Shown here in pieces: positions 2 to 6,062 of a stretch of 6,325 nucleotides of DNA. Origin of the DNA: a bacterium (GTDB lineage: Bacteria; Thermosulfidibacterota; Thermosulfidibacteria; Thermosulfidibacterales; Thermosulfidibacteraceae); assembly GCA_027022065.1 (NCBI GenBank), contig JALVZS010000208.1, positions 1 through 6,325 of the forward strand, read 5' to 3'. The notes below the pieces were generated by a model. That model ran no database searches. It was not told the origin of the DNA and was given only the letters and a program-made list of their open reading frames with translations. Both the position numbers and the translations under genes were made by a program. Within the stretch, counting starts at the first letter, position 1, and each line of letters begins with the position of its first letter.

Positions 2-841
2 AGACAGCTGGTGGTAAAACTAAAACCCGAGAAGTTCAGCCACATAATTGCAGAGGTTTCCCTTTTCAGACCGGGACCCGTTGAGGGCAATATGGTATCG
101 CCTTATGTGCTCAGAAAGAACGGAAGGCAAAAAGTTTCTTATACTCATCCTTCTTTGAAGCCCATCCTGGAAGAGACTTATGGGGTAATTCTCTTCCAGG
201 AACAGGTGCTTAGGATAGCTCACGTGGTTGCTGGCATGGATTACTCCGAAGCTGATGCCTTCAGAAGAGCCATGACCAGGGACAGAAGCCCAGAAGAAAT
301 GGCAAAGCTAAGAGAAAAGTTCATAACAGGTGCTCTTGAAAGAGGATACACCAAGGAAACAGCCGAGGAGATCTTCAGTATGGTAGCATCCTTTGCTGCC
401 TATGGCTTTTGCAAAGCCCATGCAGCTTCCTTTGCTCACATTACCTACCAGAGCGCCTATCTTAAGTCGCACTACACAAGGGAGTTCTATATAGGGCTTT
501 TAAATGCAGGCTGTGTAGGTTCATACCCAAGCTTTGTCATACTCAACGAGGCAAGGAGAAAAGGAATTCTCATTTATCCCCCTCACGTTAATTACAGCTT
601 TACTGAATATGTGGCTGAGAGAGAGGGTATCAGGGTTCCTCTCACCGAGGTGAGGTTTGTGGGAAAAAGAAATGCTGAGCTAATCGTTGCTGAAAGGGAA
701 AGAAACGGCAGCTACACAAGCATTGAGGATTTCAAAAACAGAACCGGAGTAAACAAAAGAACCCTTGAGAGTCTTCTCATGGCAGGAGCTTTGGAAGGAC
801 TGGAGGTGAAAGAGCATGAACCCGTTTTCTCAACTGCTTAG
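2..841 (+). CDS. DnaE2/ImuC-like DNA polymerase III alpha subunit, C-terminal part (5' partial)
   Basis: This is the fingers and helix-hairpin-helix part of a C-family (DnaE) DNA polymerase, which extends DNA primers. The frame is open to the window edge, so GTG at 11 is an internal Val codon and the PHP and palm domains with the catalytic aspartates lie upstream. Numbering from that codon, FRPGPVEG, then TYGVILFQEQV, EADAFRRAM and YGFCKAHAASFA are C-family fingers motifs. A (HhH)2-like segment follows (RFVGKRNAELI through LMAGALEGL). RPGPVEG, LFQEQ, HAASFA and LLNAG..GSYPSF..LNEARRKGI..YPPHVN.S resemble DnaE2/ImuC more than replicative DnaE, which usually has HSAAYA. The protein stops right after the HhH segment, where relatives continue into a linker and OB-fold. 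That OB-fold is encoded by the next, overlapping gene. DnaE superfamily membership is certain; the DnaE2-type assignment is moderately sure. No tau-binding domain is seen. Confidence 0.93.
   Translation, partial: RQLVVKLKPEKFSHIIAEVSLFRPGPVEGNMVSPYVLRKNGRQKVSYTHPSLKPILEETYGVILFQEQVLRIAHVVAGMDYSEADAFRRAMTRDRSPEEMAKLREKFITGALERGYTKETAEEIFSMVASFAAYGFCKAHAASFAHITYQSAYLKSHYTREFYIGLLNAGCVGSYPSFVILNEARRKGILIYPPHVNYSFTEYVAEREGIRVPLTEVRFVGKRNAELIVAERERNGSYTSIEDFKNRTGVNKRTLESLLMAGALEGLEVKEHEPVFSTA
802..809 (+). promoter_or_regulatory. Ribosome binding site GGAGGTGA of the OB-fold gene
   Basis: GGAGGTGA ends 6 nt before the ATG at 816 and lies inside the 3' end of the polymerase gene. It is near-consensus and decides that the OB-fold protein has its own start. 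This argues for a real gene split with translational coupling rather than a sequencing frameshift. Confidence 0.8.
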
Positions 842-1286
842 AGACTTGAATCTAAAGGTGTATACAAGAACTCATCCTCTTGAGATCATGCGTCCGCACC
901 TTGACGCTTTAGGATTTGTGAAAGCTTCTGATCTTGAAGGAATTCCCCACGGCACAGAAGTGCTTGTAGCTGGGTTAGTGGTGTTAGTGCACAATCCACC
1001 CATCAGATCAGGAAAAAGAGTTATGTTTGTAACCCTGGAAGATGAAACAGGGCTTATTGATCTGGTGATACCTCCAAAAAGTCTTGGAGAGTGCGCAAAG
1101 GAAGTTGTATTTCACTCCATAGCGTTTCTTAGCGGAAAGGTTGAGAAGATAATGGAAGCTGTAAGGGTAAACGTAACGTCAAAAGCCCCCTGCAGGCTTT
1201 CATTGAGAGTAGATCCCAGGGAGGTGCAGTATGAATATGAACTCTGCAAGAGCCTTTTTGATAATGGACACAGAGACCGTCACTGA
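816..1286 (+). CDS. Stand-alone OB-fold subunit matching the C-terminal domain of DnaE2-type polymerases
   Basis: This 156-aa protein corresponds to the nucleic-acid-binding OB-fold (tRNA_anti type) normally fused at the C-terminus of DnaE2/DnaE. Visible in family order are THPLEIMR (about residues 19-26), the turn into the first strands (EVLVAGLVV, 48-56), FVTLEDETGLIDLVI (71-85) and a closing strand (IAFLSGKVEKI). Helix-rich residues 1-45 match the segment just before the OB-fold in fused polymerases. No tau-binding domain follows, as in DnaE2. The gene overlaps the polymerase by 26 bp in another frame and has a strong ribosome binding site. It probably rebuilds the polymerase as a separate subunit that binds single-stranded template. 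A +1 frameshift product joining both frames is possible but not needed. Its last 56 bp overlap the exonuclease gene. Confidence 0.88.
   Translation: MNPFSQLLRDLNLKVYTRTHPLEIMRPHLDALGFVKASDLEGIPHGTEVLVAGLVVLVHNPPIRSGKRVMFVTLEDETGLIDLVIPPKSLGECAKEVVFHSIAFLSGKVEKIMEAVRVNVTSKAPCRLSLRVDPREVQYEYELCKSLFDNGHRDRH
1220..1226 (+). promoter_or_regulatory. Ribosome binding site GGAGGTG of the exonuclease gene
   Basis: GGAGG at 1220-1224, extended by TG, sits 6 nt before the ATG at 1231 and inside the OB-fold gene. It picks 1231 as the start. The in-frame ATG at 1264 would place the catalytic Asp at residue 2 and has no such site. ATG at 1237 is a less well spaced alternative. Confidence 0.75.
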
Positions 1287-1956
1287 CCTGGATGTACTCA
1301 ATAAGCTTGGAAGTGAAGAAGACCGGCAGAAGTACAATGAAGGGGAATTCATGCCCAAGGGATACCATAGGATAGTAGCAATCTCTTTCATTGCCTATCT
1401 GCAAGAAAGCGAAGGAGAAGAAAAAATGGCTTACGAAAGTCTTGTTTCAAAAGATTCTTTCAAAGTGATAGATAGGTTCCTGAAGGTGATCCGAGCTTTT
1501 GTAGAGAAAATCAACATTTACCCTGTTATTGTCACCTTCAATGGGAGTAGATTTGATCTGCCGATTCTGAGAATAAACATCCTTGAACATTACGAAAGCT
1601 TATCTGACAAAGCCAGGGCAGGTGCAAAGTACTTTATGGATACCGAGGACAAGTGGGAAAAAGAAAAAGCAAACTACCAGCGCAAGTACTCAGACTATCA
1701 CATAGATCTCTATGAAATATTTCCTTCAAGACTGGAGATTCTCTGTCACAGATGCGGCATAAGGGCCAAAAGCACAATGAAAGGAAAGGAAGTTGAAAGA
1801 TACTACAAGGAAAACAAACTAAGAGAAATAGCCATTTACTGTGCCGAAGATGTTCTTGCTCAAGCAGAGCTGCTGAACAGATTACTGGTGATACAAGGAA
1901 AGGAGCCGATAAAAATCCCTCAGTCCGTTGATGAGTGCAAAGTTGAAATCTTGTGA
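1231..1956 (+). CDS. Predicted 3'-5' exonuclease of the PolB-exonuclease-like family (COG3298 / DNA_pol_B_exo2 type)
   Basis: This 241-aa DEDD-fold exonuclease is expected to remove 3'-terminal nucleotides with two metal ions. Exo I is MDTET (Asp13, Glu15), Exo II is FNGSRFDLP (Asn104, Phe108, Asp109) and Exo III is YCAEDVL (Tyr203, Asp207), a DEDDy-type set. The family trait HIDLYE lies at 157-162, and the GKEVERYY stretch precedes Exo III. The length suits a free-standing nuclease and there is no polymerase domain. The gene overlaps the OB-fold gene by 56 bp, so it is very likely co-translated with the polymerase parts. C-family polymerases of the DnaE2 type have no 3'-5' exonuclease of their own, so an in-trans proofreading role is a reasonable inference. 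DNA repair trimming is an alternative. Confidence 0.9.
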   Translation: MNMNSARAFLIMDTETVTDLDVLNKLGSEEDRQKYNEGEFMPKGYHRIVAISFIAYLQESEGEEKMAYESLVSKDSFKVIDRFLKVIRAFVEKINIYPVIVTFNGSRFDLPILRINILEHYESLSDKARAGAKYFMDTEDKWEKEKANYQRKYSDYHIDLYEIFPSRLEILCHRCGIRAKSTMKGKEVERYYKENKLREIAIYCAEDVLAQAELLNRLLVIQGKEPIKIPQSVDECKVEIL

Positions 1957-2006: not shown

Positions 2007-2537
2007 CTAATGACACAAACATTCCATTAGATCGTGACTCATACTCCATAGCCCTCTATTGTTTTCCTCTGCCTCTTTTTGAGCCATCAGATAAGACTTT
2101 TTGTGGTTTTTCCAGTAAACGCAAGCGTATCCTTCTTTTATCATTTTCAGTCCATAGTCGCTTCCGTCAGACAGGTATACTATTCCCAAAACTCTACCGT
2201 AGTAACCTCTCCCTTTAGGTTCCAGGGTTATCCATGAATGAGCAAGCAATTCTTTAGCCTTTTTGCTTGCTATACGGCCAAGCTCTTTTATCGTCATAAT
2301 GTTGGCATTGCAACGTACGGCATCTTTTCTCAGCTTGCCTGAGTCAAACTTTTCTGGAGTGTCAATGCCCCAGATGCGTACCTTAAACCTTCTGCCATCT
2401 TCAGTAGAAACCCATATCGTGTCACCGTCAGACACTTTTACGACGTAAGCCCTTATGTTCTTGGCATAAGATGCGGAAAATATTGAAAGAAAAAGCAGGA
2501 CAAGAGAAATAAATTTTTGCATAAATCTTTCAATCAT
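2007..2537 (-). CDS. Exported thermonuclease-like protein (staphylococcal nuclease family)
   Basis: This 176-aa SNase-fold nuclease probably cleaves DNA or RNA outside the cytoplasm, using calcium in the known family. Residues 6-25 are a signal peptide: a basic start, a hydrophobic run and SYA before a likely cut after Ala25. The SNase core follows: DGDT (37-40), RIWGIDTPE (54-62), YYGRVLGIVYLSDG (112-125), GYACVYW (136-142) and RGLW (161-164). Arg54, Glu62 and Arg115 match the spacing of staphylococcal nuclease Arg35, Glu43 and Arg87; Asp39 and Asp59 match the metal ligands Asp21 and Asp40. The catalytic set is therefore complete. AGGAGGAG at 2541-2548 supports the ATG at 2537. It lies 64 nt downstream of the winged-helix gene, beyond a hairpin. 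Such nucleases are common on mobile elements; the role here may be scavenging or defence. Confidence 0.9.
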   Translation of the reverse strand: MIERFMQKFISLVLLFLSIFSASYAKNIRAYVVKVSDGDTIWVSTEDGRRFKVRIWGIDTPEKFDSGKLRKDAVRCNANIMTIKELGRIASKKAKELLAHSWITLEPKGRGYYGRVLGIVYLSDGSDYGLKMIKEGYACVYWKNHKKSYLMAQKEAEENNRGLWSMSHDLMECLCH

Positions 2538-2601: not shown

Positions 2602-3123
2602 TTAGTTTAACGGTCCGAGTAACTTAGGGTTGACAGTTTCGATGACTTTTTCCCAGCTTAGTTCTTTTGCTCTTTTTTCTCCTTTGGGAGTAAGCCTCCA
2701 CCTGCCCTTGCACACGTTTTCAATCCATCCGTTTCTTTTCAGGTAGTCTAAAGAATTGCTTAACTTGATAGATACTGTCCTTACTTCTTCTCTCTCATAT
2801 AAAGGAAACATGTTCTTAATTTCTTTGGCTAACTCTGTCCTTTCAGTCTCTCCACCTTTTTCCAGCAACAAGAGGAGTATAACTTCACCTAAGCTTTGCT
2901 CACATGTCTTTTGCAAAAAGTATCTTCTTAACAACTCAGCAAAATCTTCCTTAACCTTATTGCCTGTAATGATTCTATGGATCATAATACCTGCTATCCA
3001 TGCTCTACGTACATCTTTAGGTAAAAAAACAGATTCATACTTTTTAATAGTCTCGAAATATACTTCTAACCATGCTCCCAATTCCTTAATTGCATCTTCC
3101 CTTGTTAAAGCTTCTTTCACCAT
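2602..3123 (-). CDS. Winged-helix protein, C-terminal domain like Mrr_N; function unknown
   Basis: This 173-aa protein is probably a DNA-binding regulator. Residues 1-90 are helical with no motif I recognise. Residues about 92-155 look like a winged helix: ELAKEIKNMF, a long helix VSIKLSNSLDYLKRNGWIEN, then the wing CKGRWRLTPKGEKRAKEL, a pattern typical of the N-terminal domain of Mrr-type proteins. There is no Mrr nuclease domain. The frame stays open upstream to an ATG at 3234, but the start at 3123 is preferred. GGAGG at 3129-3133 lies 5 nt before it, whereas 3234 has no ribosome site, and a TTGACA promoter lies inside the possible extension. The nuclease gene follows after a hairpin. Autoregulation through the upstream dyad is conceivable. 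Confidence 0.75.
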   Translation of the reverse strand: MVKEALTREDAIKELGAWLEVYFETIKKYESVFLPKDVRRAWIAGIMIHRIITGNKVKEDFAELLRRYFLQKTCEQSLGEVILLLLLEKGGETERTELAKEIKNMFPLYEREEVRTVSIKLSNSLDYLKRNGWIENVCKGRWRLTPKGEKRAKELSWEKVIETVNPKLLGPLN

Positions 3124-3152
3124 TCCTGCCTCCTTAAAAGTTCTTGCGTAAA

Positions 3153-3180
3153 AATTTATTCCCCAGCCTAATAGTGTCAA
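3153..3180 (-). promoter_or_regulatory. Sigma-70-type promoter of the winged-helix gene
   Basis: On the - strand, a perfect TTGACA (-35, 3175-3180) is followed after 16 nt by TAAATT (-10, 3153-3158; 4 of 6 consensus). The predicted start near 3146 gives a leader of about 23 nt containing the GGAGG site and the ATG at 3123. This fit also supports the shorter start of the gene. Confidence 0.55.
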
Positions 3181-3283
3181 GTATTTTTTTATTAGACCAG
3201 TATAAAATCTTAAAACTCCACTTGTTAAGCCCATTTGCTTGGAGTCTACTACGTAATAGCTAATTTAAAATGTTTCATAAAAA

Positions 3284-3393: not shown

Positions 3394-3427
3394 TTTGATT
3401 GAATTTGATTGAATGATGTTGATTGAA
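3394..3427. repeat. Short direct repeats TTTGATTGAA (two tandem copies plus one)
   Basis: TTTGATTGAA occurs twice head-to-tail at 3394-3403 and 3404-3413. A third copy, matching 9 of 10 bases, lies at 3418-3427. The tandem period of 10 bp puts the copies on the same DNA face. GAATGAT also recurs at 3383 and 3411. This could be a small protein-binding array or a slippage product. Confidence 0.6.
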
Positions 3428-3469: not shown

Positions 3470-4579
3470 CTATCGTTTCAGAGCCGATCTCGTCCCTACC
3501 ACCGGTCTTGGTTTCTTGGTAGGTATCATTTCATAGATGACCTTTTTGAAAGGCTTCTTGTAGGTGATACTGCATGTACCATGTTGCCTAAGTGCATATT
3601 TCAGCACTATTTTGTTTCTCTCTTCCAAGGGTTTGCCTCTTATCTTTCGCAAAAAGTTCCTTCTGAAGTCGCGGTAAATAACCGTCATAGGCTTATTCCC
3701 GCAAGGAGCTTCCATAGGTTTATCAACGCAGAGAAAGGCTTTTACTCTGGGTATATAGTGGTTTTCAATCACTATAGGCTCAGTGCAATAGACGGTAGCT
3801 TCATATTTAAAGTCAAAGTTATAGACATCCCCGAGATCTTTTCCTATGTATTTGAAGGTAACCTCGCGGTCTATTACAAAGTGTCTGTCAATCCTCTGAG
3901 TAGTTGCAAAGTACACCTTCCAGAAGAAATCGGGGTACCTCGCTTCAATATAGGTGGATTCATAAAGGTCTATATCTGAAGCAAGGAAGAAAGGCATCAA
4001 TGGCTCTGCTACATCTTCTTTTGCAAAGCACGGATACTTCTTAGGAACGGAAAGAATATACTGCCGCAGTATCTGTGCATGTTCTGGTTTAAGCTTGTGA
4101 AGAGTGTATAAGTACGAATCAGGCCACATGCCTCCTGCTTCAAGATGTCTGGTAGAAAGAACGTGTGGCGGTAGGTATATCCACTTAAGGCTCACTATGG
4201 GGATATTATTGTGATCTCTTATTGTTACCTTTCTGGGTTTTATAATGAAAAAGACCTCCTGCTCGCACAGGTTGCCTTTAGGTGCAACGAAAAAAACCCG
4301 AGGAGAAGTGCCGTAGCTATCGGGATTAATTTGAGTAAAAGGAACTCCCATATCCATTTCATCTATTATTACGTCGCCTTTAGGCTGGTATTCCCACACC
4401 TTGGGAAAGTACGCGTGTCCTAAGAAGTGCCAGTAGCCGCTGCGAGCAAGAGGCCATCCAAGAGCCATATCGAATTTGTAACGCAAGTAGCTACGCTTAG
4501 ATCCCATATAGTTACCTGCACAGCCTGTAAGAAGGACAGCCAAGCACAAAAAACCTATTACATAACGGCCCAAAGCCAT
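3470..4579 (-). CDS. Lipoprotein of unknown function
   Basis: This 369-aa protein has a lipoprotein signal: a short N-region with Arg5, a hydrophobic run and lipobox LTGC, with Cys20 as the lipidated residue. Ala at +2 predicts outer-membrane sorting if the host is diderm. The mature part has no further membrane span, is rich in Tyr, Phe and Lys/Arg, and looks beta-rich. Six cysteines follow (105, 184, 265, 284, 293, 336), an even number compatible with disulfides. The tail after about 340 is strongly basic. I recognise no family. It is last in the - strand operon, overlapping the upstream paralogue by 22 bp, and GAGG lies 8 nt before the ATG. Co-translation suggests it works with the two paralogues or is regulated with them. 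Confidence 0.85.
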   Translation of the reverse strand: MALGRYVIGFLCLAVLLTGCAGNYMGSKRSYLRYKFDMALGWPLARSGYWHFLGHAYFPKVWEYQPKGDVIIDEMDMGVPFTQINPDSYGTSPRVFFVAPKGNLCEQEVFFIIKPRKVTIRDHNNIPIVSLKWIYLPPHVLSTRHLEAGGMWPDSYLYTLHKLKPEHAQILRQYILSVPKKYPCFAKEDVAEPLMPFFLASDIDLYESTYIEARYPDFFWKVYFATTQRIDRHFVIDREVTFKYIGKDLGDVYNFDFKYEATVYCTEPIVIENHYIPRVKAFLCVDKPMEAPCGNKPMTVIYRDFRRNFLRKIRGKPLEERNKIVLKYALRQHGTCSITYKKPFKKVIYEMIPTKKPRPVVGTRSALKR

Positions 4580-5310
4580 GACATAAGCCTCGGCACTTCC
4601 CTTTTTACTAACGGACAGTAAACCTTTTCTTTACACACCGCCTTATTGCCGAAGCTAACGTTACCCTCAGGAAAAACATACATGTGTCCTATGCTGAAGG
4701 GCTTGTAGATAGGTTTTTCGAAAAACAAAAAGCATTCAGCCAGGCTTTTCAGTTTGCCATAGGTTTGATCTACAATCTCAATACCATCCCAGGGCACCTG
4801 TATGCTGCATCTGTAATCTTTCCTATTAACCACTACCAACCCTGAGTTTTCCGGAGCCATGTAAGGGGTAAAGGTAAACCTCAAGTCTTCAGCATATACC
4901 TCTTTGAGGCTTTCAAAAGCAGCCTTCAAAAGGTTAGCGTTTTGCGGAGTTAAGAACACTAAAGTACAGGTAAGATCTTTAAGATCCTTGAAGTACATTT
5001 TAAAGCTGCCATCTTCCTTGGATATAAGTCTAAACCTTTGCTGGCGGTTGCCGTAGTAGGGCGTAGCAGGTTTTACCCTCTTGGCCACAAGAAGTATCTC
5101 GCCCAATAGCTCAAGAGGTATCCTTACTTCGCCTACAAAGGGGTCAGCTTCAACATCACTGCCGTCAGGCATAGTCAGCATGTAACGCTCGGTATGTTTG
5201 CCGATACACTTAAAAACCAGTTCACCGTTAACAACGCTGAAGGTTAAATCAATGTTGTTTCTGGTAACATGCCGGTAGAAGATGATCTCTTCTTTCGTTT
5301 TAACAGCCAT
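4558..5310 (-). CDS. Uncharacterised protein, paralogue B of a tandem pair
   Basis: This 250-aa protein has no signal peptide or membrane segment, so it is probably cytoplasmic. I do not recognise the family. It is a diverged full-length copy of its upstream neighbour. Shared blocks are GKH (37-39), EADPF.GEV..P (54-65), LGE..L (69-74), LRFT.T (143-148), LKSLAE (187-192) and YVFPEGNVSFG (211-221). Strand-like stretches alternate with short Leu-rich helices, suggesting a beta-rich modular fold. Cys are at 35, 115, 168, 193, 226 and 232. The leader has a strong GGAGGTGG site at 5314-5321, with 29 nt to the upstream stop. The C-terminus overlaps the lipoprotein start by 22 bp. A structural, nucleic-acid-binding or clamp-like role cannot be told apart from sequence alone. 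Confidence 0.85.
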   Translation of the reverse strand: MAVKTKEEIIFYRHVTRNNIDLTFSVVNGELVFKCIGKHTERYMLTMPDGSDVEADPFVGEVRIPLELLGEILLVAKRVKPATPYYGNRQQRFRLISKEDGSFKMYFKDLKDLTCTLVFLTPQNANLLKAAFESLKEVYAEDLRFTFTPYMAPENSGLVVVNRKDYRCSIQVPWDGIEIVDQTYGKLKSLAECFLFFEKPIYKPFSIGHMYVFPEGNVSFGNKAVCKEKVYCPLVKREVPRLMSWLWAVM

Positions 5311-5339: not shown

Positions 5340-6062
5340 TTAACTAAGTACATATCCGATTTTTTTCAACAGGGAAAACTCGCCATTTCCGTAAGTCCTT
5401 CCTAATACGTTCATTTTTCCGTCAGGCAAAACCAGAATAACGGAACCGTTACTGACGAACCTGTAAGACCTAATCAGTTCTGCTCCACCCAGAACCAGTC
5501 TTGCAAGTTCCTTGAGGTCGTATATCTCTTTGCCACTTAAAGTAGCATCTCCTGCAGGAGTTATAAACTTTAGAACCTTCTGCAAGGGCAGGTACTCCAT
5601 GAACAGAGTTCTTCCTTTTTCTGTATGTGTGAACCTGACACATTTGATATTATCCTTAATGTATCTGGCAAAGCCTGTAATAGAAACAGCTATGCCACCA
5701 CCGACGTTAACAACTGTTCGTGCAGCATTTCTGTAATCGGTGAAGGTGAACCTTATAACCGTACCCTTTCTGGAGACCCTAACCTTTCTGCTGTCTACTC
5801 CCAAGTCCTGGCTTTTACTAACGCCACCAACAATTCCGAGAAAGAACTCTCCAAAAACGGATGAAGGCAGCAAAACTTCTCCGTTGAAAGGTTCTGCTTC
5901 CTTGTTTTCTTTACCAAGCCTAATAGAAAACTTCTGGTCATGCTTACCGCTACAGGTAAGTCTTATTTCGTCCCTTTCTGGAATAAAAAGCATTCTTATG
6001 TCAGCAGTCCTTGCCTTGTAATCGTAGTAGATTGACTCAAGCATTGCTCTGGTTTGTTCCAT
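5340..6062 (-). CDS. Uncharacterised protein, paralogue A of a tandem pair
   Basis: This 240-aa protein is predicted to be soluble, with no signal peptide, and I do not recognise the family. Homology to the downstream gene is visible end to end: GKH (39-41), EAEPFNGEVLLP (55-66), GEFFLG (71-76), KVRVSRKG..IRFTF (93-107), VRFTHT (142-147), LKELARL (183-189) and LVLPDGKMNVLG (210-221). The protein reads as four strand-rich units each ending in a short helix, near 22-80, 92-137, 139-193 and 200-240. That division is only a visual inference. The ATG at 6062 is fixed by GGAGGTGG at 6067-6074 and lies within the end of the upstream gene. Only 29 nt separate it from paralogue B, so the two are co-transcribed. 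Confidence 0.85.
   Translation of the reverse strand: MEQTRAMLESIYYDYKARTADIRMLFIPERDEIRLTCSGKHDQKFSIRLGKENKEAEPFNGEVLLPSSVFGEFFLGIVGGVSKSQDLGVDSRKVRVSRKGTVIRFTFTDYRNAARTVVNVGGGIAVSITGFARYIKDNIKCVRFTHTEKGRTLFMEYLPLQKVLKFITPAGDATLSGKEIYDLKELARLVLGGAELIRSYRFVSNGSVILVLPDGKMNVLGRTYGNGEFSLLKKIGYVLS

What the first reader, a model, noticed from the sequence alone, without database searches (positions are those of the whole stretch)
2..1956. Split DnaE2-like polymerase, OB-fold and exonuclease cassette
A DnaE2/ImuC-like polymerase ends right after its HhH segment. Its missing OB-fold is a separate overlapping gene, followed at once by a DEDDy exonuclease. Known DnaE2 genes are single polypeptides usually found with imuA/imuB. 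A three-gene split with a dedicated nuclease looks like a distinct, perhaps element-borne, DNA synthesis module.
Basis: partly seen in the sequence, partly recalled or inferred. Interest (0 to 1): 0.75.

Follow-up and report, generated by a model that had tools for sequence, protein, structure and literature searches.

The report
Split accessory DNA polymerase with exonuclease
On a compositionally foreign scrap of DNA in an uncultured bacterium's draft genome, an accessory DNA polymerase of the error-prone (DnaE2-like) kind appears to be made as separate proteins, with its single-strand-binding (OB) domain as its own gene and a 3'-5' exonuclease gene directly behind it, an arrangement I did not find elsewhere, although its front half is missing and nothing has been tested at the bench.

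Summary
ORF1 (2-841, 5' end off the contig) is the fingers and (HhH)2 part of a DnaE-type polymerase. ORF2 (816-1286) is its OB domain as a separate gene. ORF3 (1231-1956) is a PolB-type (PF10108) exonuclease with all DEDDy residues in place. The split is probably real. The OB and exonuclease starts each follow a strong ribosome-binding site; the motif GGAGGTG occurs four times in the window, always just before a start codon. The HhH-to-OB spacing is 29 residues, against 57-92 in every fused relative measured, so one base error cannot give back an ordinary gene. In trees the fragment lies on the DnaE2 side, at its base, outside the core clade; the host's own DnaE is DnaE1. No second copy of the cassette was found in 386 genomes, the viral contigs or the one genome-collection scan, and no Y-family gene is in the bin. 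The contig's composition is foreign to the bin, so it is element-borne or mis-binned. I read it as a new variant of an accessory DnaE2-like polymerase with a detached OB subunit and a recruited exonuclease. Function is inferred, and palm and PHP are unseen.

The parts
2..841 (+). C-terminal part (fingers + tandem HhH) of a DnaE2-like C-family DNA polymerase; 5' end runs off the contig
   Evidence: PF17657 8.7e-41, PF14579 1.5e-21; on the DnaE2 side of trees, 100/99 and 98/94
802..809 (+). Shine-Dalgarno GGAGGTGA for the OB gene; its TGA (807-809) also closes the OB frame upstream of the ATG
   Evidence: GGAGGTG at 802; sequence
816..1286 (+). stand-alone OB-fold protein (156 aa), homologous to the DnaE2 segment from the 'GLSLRRHPL' motif through the OB domain
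   Evidence: PF01336 3.1e-9; NF004225 2.1e-16; alignment A2
1220..1226 (+). Shine-Dalgarno GGAGGTG for the exonuclease gene
1231..1956 (+). DEDDy 3'-5' exonuclease, PF10108 (DNA_pol_B_exo2), 241 aa, catalytic residues intact
   Evidence: PF10108 6.9e-25; alignments A3, A4; tree

Best explanation
An accessory, non-replicative C-family polymerase of the DnaE2-like kind, carried on a mobile element or other foreign DNA and made as separate subunits. The catalytic chain ends after the tandem HhH. The OB domain is translated from its own start as a small ssDNA-binding subunit. A PolB-type DEDDy exonuclease, from a family of which the host also carries a copy, is made next from the same overlapping operon and most likely acts as an added 3'-5' proofreading or end-trimming subunit. 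Shown here: gene order, domains, intact exonuclease residues, translation signals, shortened HhH-to-OB junction, DnaE2-side placement, foreign composition. Inferred: that the chains reassemble, that the exonuclease works on this polymerase's products, and that the unit synthesises or repairs the element's DNA, possibly weakly clamp-bound because the shortened junction is where the beta-clamp motif normally lies.
For: Domains and families. Trees place the fragment with DnaE2 (100/99, 98/94), apart from the host DnaE at C32 and from viral DnaEs. GGAGGTG only at gene starts, including OB and exo. HhH-to-OB spacing 29.3 aa against 57-92 in all fused loci measured. Catalytic residues conserved. No second DnaE palm and no Y-family gene in the bin. 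Contig GC 0.417 against 0.44-0.53; tetranucleotide correlation 0.65 against 0.80-0.90. The nearest DnaE2-like relatives in the first tree are plasmid-borne. The exonuclease groups at 99/98 with six PF10108-like proteins including the host's own C249 copy.
Against: A single truncated contig, found once. The catalytic half, PHP and promoter are not visible. No co-occurrence series supports a complex. The same bin has a frame-broken exonuclease gene at C249, so indels may occur in this assembly. The exonuclease family is widespread and often not linked to any polymerase. The folds predicted for the OB protein (pLDDT 36) and for g7 (43) are unusable.
Confidence: 0.5

Rival explanations
1. Assembly or sequencing artefact: the gene is an ordinary fused DnaE2-like polymerase and an indel between 810 and 838 splits the frame.
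For: The two frames are offset by one base and overlap by 26 nt; a TTTT run lies in the overlap; the bin has another frame-broken gene, C249.
Against: Even if joined, the HhH-to-OB spacing would be about 29 aa against 57-92 in all measured fused genes. A strong GGAGGTGA ribosome-binding site precedes the OB ATG, and GGAGGTG occurs elsewhere in the window only before exo, g7 and g8.
Confidence: 0.12
2. A decaying accessory polymerase: the split and shortened linker are the first steps of loss, and the OB and exonuclease genes no longer serve it.
For: Loss of OB in several DnaE2s is published (PMC3919608); a decayed DnaE2 is seen at G087:C10; no second copy of the split was found.
Against: All three frames are intact with conserved motifs and two dedicated ribosome-binding sites; the OB ORF shows no internal frame break.
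Confidence: 0.2
3. The exonuclease is an unrelated neighbour (cargo or repair nuclease), not a subunit; only the polymerase and OB belong together.
For: PF10108-like genes occur beside thrS-infC, dapA or Tn7-like cargo in other places; none of the exonuclease loci opened lay next to a split DnaE2.
Against: A 56-nt overlap with the OB gene and a matching ribosome-binding site imply co-translation.
Confidence: 0.3
4. The contig is mis-binned from another organism's chromosome and is not element-borne.
For: Composition differs from the other contigs tested; no mobility gene is recognised in the window.
Against: The neighbours are orphans, one thermonuclease and one wHTH-like protein, with no housekeeping genes; TTGATTGAA repeats lie in an AT-rich gap.
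Confidence: 0.3

Closest known systems
DnaE2 / ImuC polymerases (DnaE2A, DnaE2B, DnaE2X; PMC12926913)
   Same: C-family, DnaE2-side placement, HhH + OB without a detectable DnaE1-type CTD, accessory to a separate replicative DnaE1
   Different: OB is a separate gene, HhH-to-OB linker about 30 aa shorter, a DEDDy exonuclease follows, no Y-family partner in the bin; the passages read from that survey list no exonuclease among its 11 complex types
DnaE2s lacking the OB domain (PMC3919608)
   Same: polymerase chain ends after (HhH)2
   Different: here the OB is retained as a separate, overlapping gene
Split minimal Pol III alpha of jumbo phages (PMC7824862)
   Same: C-family polymerase made from separate polypeptides
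   Different: those are split inside the catalytic core, encoded far apart and lack other Pol III domains; here the cut is between HhH and OB and the genes overlap
Cyanobacterial intein-split DnaE
   Same: a DnaE encoded by two genes
   Different: that split is mended by trans-splicing of inteins; the window ORFs have only about 9-10 residues each outside the homologous parts at the junction, no room for intein halves
Pol III alpha-epsilon (DnaQ)
   Same: separate 3'-5' exonuclease accompanying a DnaE
   Different: DnaQ is DEDDh; this is DEDDy of the PolB-exonuclease type (PF10108/COG3298)

Membership tests
DnaE2 (C-family accessory polymerase) | groups with DnaE2 rather than DnaE1 in a tree | tested here: met
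   100/99, 98/94 with 35 DnaE2 rows, but at the base, outside the core clade
DnaE2 (C-family accessory polymerase) | single polypeptide PHP-Pol3-(HhH)2-OB, or the same without OB | tested here: not met
   OB is a separate ORF 816-1286
DnaE2 (C-family accessory polymerase) | no C-terminal tau-binding domain | tested here: met
   neither ORF1 nor ORF2 reaches the DnaE1 CTD part of the models
DnaE2 (C-family accessory polymerase) | catalytic aspartates in the palm; state of the PHP site | not testable with these tools
   5' part is off the contig and not found in the bin; sampled bin contigs below about 2.4 kb read as N
ImuA-ImuB-DnaE2 mutasome (DnaE2A) | ImuB (Y-family homolog) in the genome | tested here: not met
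   no PF00817 match in the bin, which is 88% complete
Replicative DnaE1 | single main polymerase with OB + CTD, in the DnaE1 clade | tested here: not met
   the host has its own 1154-aa DnaE at C32 in the DnaE1 clade; the window fragment lies outside it
PF10108 DNA_pol_B_exo2 exonuclease | family match above cut-off and intact DEDDy residues | tested here: met
   88.4 bits against cut-off 24; D14, E16, D109, Y203, D207
DnaQ/epsilon proofreading subunit | DEDDh motif | tested here: not met
   third motif is YCAED, i.e. tyrosine (DEDDy)

The most novel reading that the evidence does not exclude
An element-borne class of C-family polymerase that works as a multi-subunit enzyme: a clamp-weak DnaE2-like catalytic chain, a detachable OB subunit and a B-family-type DEDDy exonuclease. 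It would turn an error-prone accessory polymerase into a proofreading one.
Probability: 0.3. Interest if true: 0.7.

Novelty: new variant of a known kind. Interest (0 to 1): 0.45.

Why it matters
DnaE2 polymerases are treated as error-prone and mostly lacking proofreading, and their OB domain as part of the chain. A natural version with the OB domain detached, and a PolB-type exonuclease in the same operon, would make two questions directly testable: what the OB domain contributes to a C-family polymerase in trans, and whether a DnaE2 can be given proofreading. It would also add a C-family plus B-family-type exonuclease pairing that I did not find described.

Tried and rejected
No relative of the exonuclease or the g6/g7/g8 neighbours was found in viral contigs; the OB query found one fused DnaE2 there (L088). 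Genome-collection scan with the exonuclease alignment: one true relative (BP4.bin65, next to a dapA-like gene); the rest are short or weak matches, mostly in archaeal records. OB profile over 386 genomes: the short frames examined were contig-edge cuts (G293, G147, G262) or a decayed gene (G087); cyanobacterial DnaE halves were set aside on prior knowledge, and G344 and G366 were not opened. G119 has a fused DnaE2 with a convergent exonuclease 0.7 kb away: not the cassette. AlphaFold on the g7/g8 pair and on the OB protein gave pLDDT 43 and 36, so no fold search was run. A clamp-like nature of g7/g8 was considered and not supported. The missing 5' half was not found in the bin. The cassette as an anti-phage module: no PADLOC match beyond E 0.035. 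A clamp motif at the ORF1 end (HEPVF, reminiscent of DnaE2 xxPLF) is only suggestive.

Full report
What is there. The window is the whole of contig C208 (6325 bp) of an 88% complete, 1.57 Mb draft genome in 251 contigs. Three genes run rightward from its left end and overlap: ORF1 2-841 (5' open), ORF2 816-1286, ORF3 1231-1956. ORF1 matches the DnaE fingers (PF17657) and the tandem HhH (PF14579, residues 188-270 of 279). ORF2 matches the OB family PF01336, and its best NCBIfam match is the OB part of error-prone DnaE2. [quoted passage not shown] All five residues of a DEDDy site are present in ORF3, read from the translation and alignments.

Is the split real? Three tests. (a) The motif GGAGGTG occurs four times on the two strands of the window, always just upstream of a gene start: OB, exo and the two leftward paralogs g7 and g8. 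The OB frame is closed by a TGA at 807-809, inside its own ribosome-binding site, so any artefactual indel would have to lie in 810-838. (b) The distance from a fixed point near the end of the HhH to the conserved His of the OB segment is 57-92 residues in all 57 fused loci measured (some are overlapping copies of one gene), and 29.3, out of frame, in the window. A single-base correction would give a gene about 30 residues short of every relative. (c) The OB protein starts just before the 'GLSLRRHPL' motif that begins the C-terminal segment of DnaE2 and covers the OB domain. I conclude that a real split is much more likely than an artefact. The bin does contain another frame-broken gene, the exonuclease paralog on C249, so read-level proof is still wanted.

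What kind of polymerase? Trees of the ORF1 region put it on the DnaE2 side (100/99; 98/94 with 35 DnaE2 rows), at the base, outside the core clade. Neighbours are divergent sequences, two of them on plasmids of Rubrobacter and an Abditibacteriota bacterium. In the larger tree the branches at the base are not resolved. The host's own replicative DnaE (C32, 1154 aa) sits with its order's DnaE1s. IMG/VR viral DnaEs form a distant group. So this is an accessory DnaE2-like polymerase, not the replicative DnaE and not a typical ImuC. No Y-family (PF00817) gene is in the bin, so an ImuB partner was not seen. The palm and PHP are off the contig and were not found elsewhere in the bin. The short contigs sampled from the bin (below about 2.4 kb) read as N, so the missing half could lie in one.

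Where does the exonuclease come from? It groups at 99/98 with six PF10108-like proteins: the host's own copy beside thrS-infC on C249, one carried beside TniB/TniQ-like genes and a truncated comM in G370, and four beside dapA-like genes. Among 386 genomes 41 have such a gene at E <= 1e-8, and none of the loci opened lay next to a split DnaE2. The nearest DnaE2-bearing plasmids and the phages tested lack PF10108 above cut-off. TniB, TniQ, comM, thrS, infC and dapA names here rest on my reading of the sequences, not on a family search.

Is the arrangement found elsewhere? An OB profile over the same 386 genomes found matches in 204 genomes. DnaE2-type hits were fused, except contig-edge fragments and one decayed gene among those opened; two further short frames (G344, G366) were not opened. 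Viral contigs and one genome-collection scan gave no second cassette. The sample is limited, and metagenome contigs could not be scanned.

Where does the contig belong? Its GC is 0.417 against 0.44-0.53 for the other contigs sampled, and its tetranucleotide profile correlates 0.65 with them, while they correlate 0.80-0.90 with each other. The leftward genes are a thermonuclease-family protein with a hydrophobic N-terminus (closest plasmid match on a Deferribacter megaplasmid), a wHTH-like protein, a lipoprotein-like orphan and an orphan paralog pair. An AT-rich gap carries three TTGATTGAA repeats. This fits a mobile element, but mis-binning is not excluded, and no replication or transfer gene was identified.

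How it probably works. The catalytic chain, the OB chain and the exonuclease are made in order from overlapping genes, which favours joint assembly. In C-family enzymes the region between HhH and OB carries the beta-clamp motif (PMC3919608). Here that region is cut and shortened, so clamp binding may be weak or replaced. The exonuclease most likely proofreads or trims for this polymerase; this is inference from gene order and the intact active site. Published surveys report DnaE2s without OB and DnaE2s without ImuA/ImuB, and a differently split Pol III alpha in jumbo phages. I found none with a separate OB gene or a PolB-type exonuclease partner, in a literature search limited to an open-access library and to the passages read.

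Verdict: observation confirmed; interpretation partly supported; new variant of a known kind; moderate interest, because it rests on one truncated copy.

Noticed in passing
window 4558-5310 and 5340-6062 (- strand): Orphan paralog pair (26% identical over 112 aa) with no relative in 386 genomes, viral contigs (each queried) or, for g7, solved structures; predicted fold of g7 unusable.
   Followed up: partly
window 3395-3427: Three TTGATTGAA repeats in a 26% GC intergenic gap (expected 0.13 in the window): iteron- or operator-like.
   Followed up: partly
window 2007-2537 (- strand): Thermonuclease family protein; best plasmid match 41% on Deferribacter desulfuricans megaplasmid pDF308.
   Followed up: partly
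window 2602-3234 (- strand): Protein with a weak match to the Mrr N-terminal domain (24.6 bits, cut-off 29.5); role unknown.
   Followed up: no
L133 3458-4250 (G000:C249): The host's own PF10108-like gene beside thrS and infC is split over two frames in the assembly.
   Followed up: no
L132 9488-11969 (G370:C1): A PF10108-like exonuclease with a 546-aa orphan, near TniB/TniQ-like and restriction-like genes and beside a truncated comM: probably cargo of a Tn7-like element (names from reading, not a family search).
   Followed up: partly
L050 (G087:C10): Decayed DnaE2 with several frame changes.
   Followed up: no
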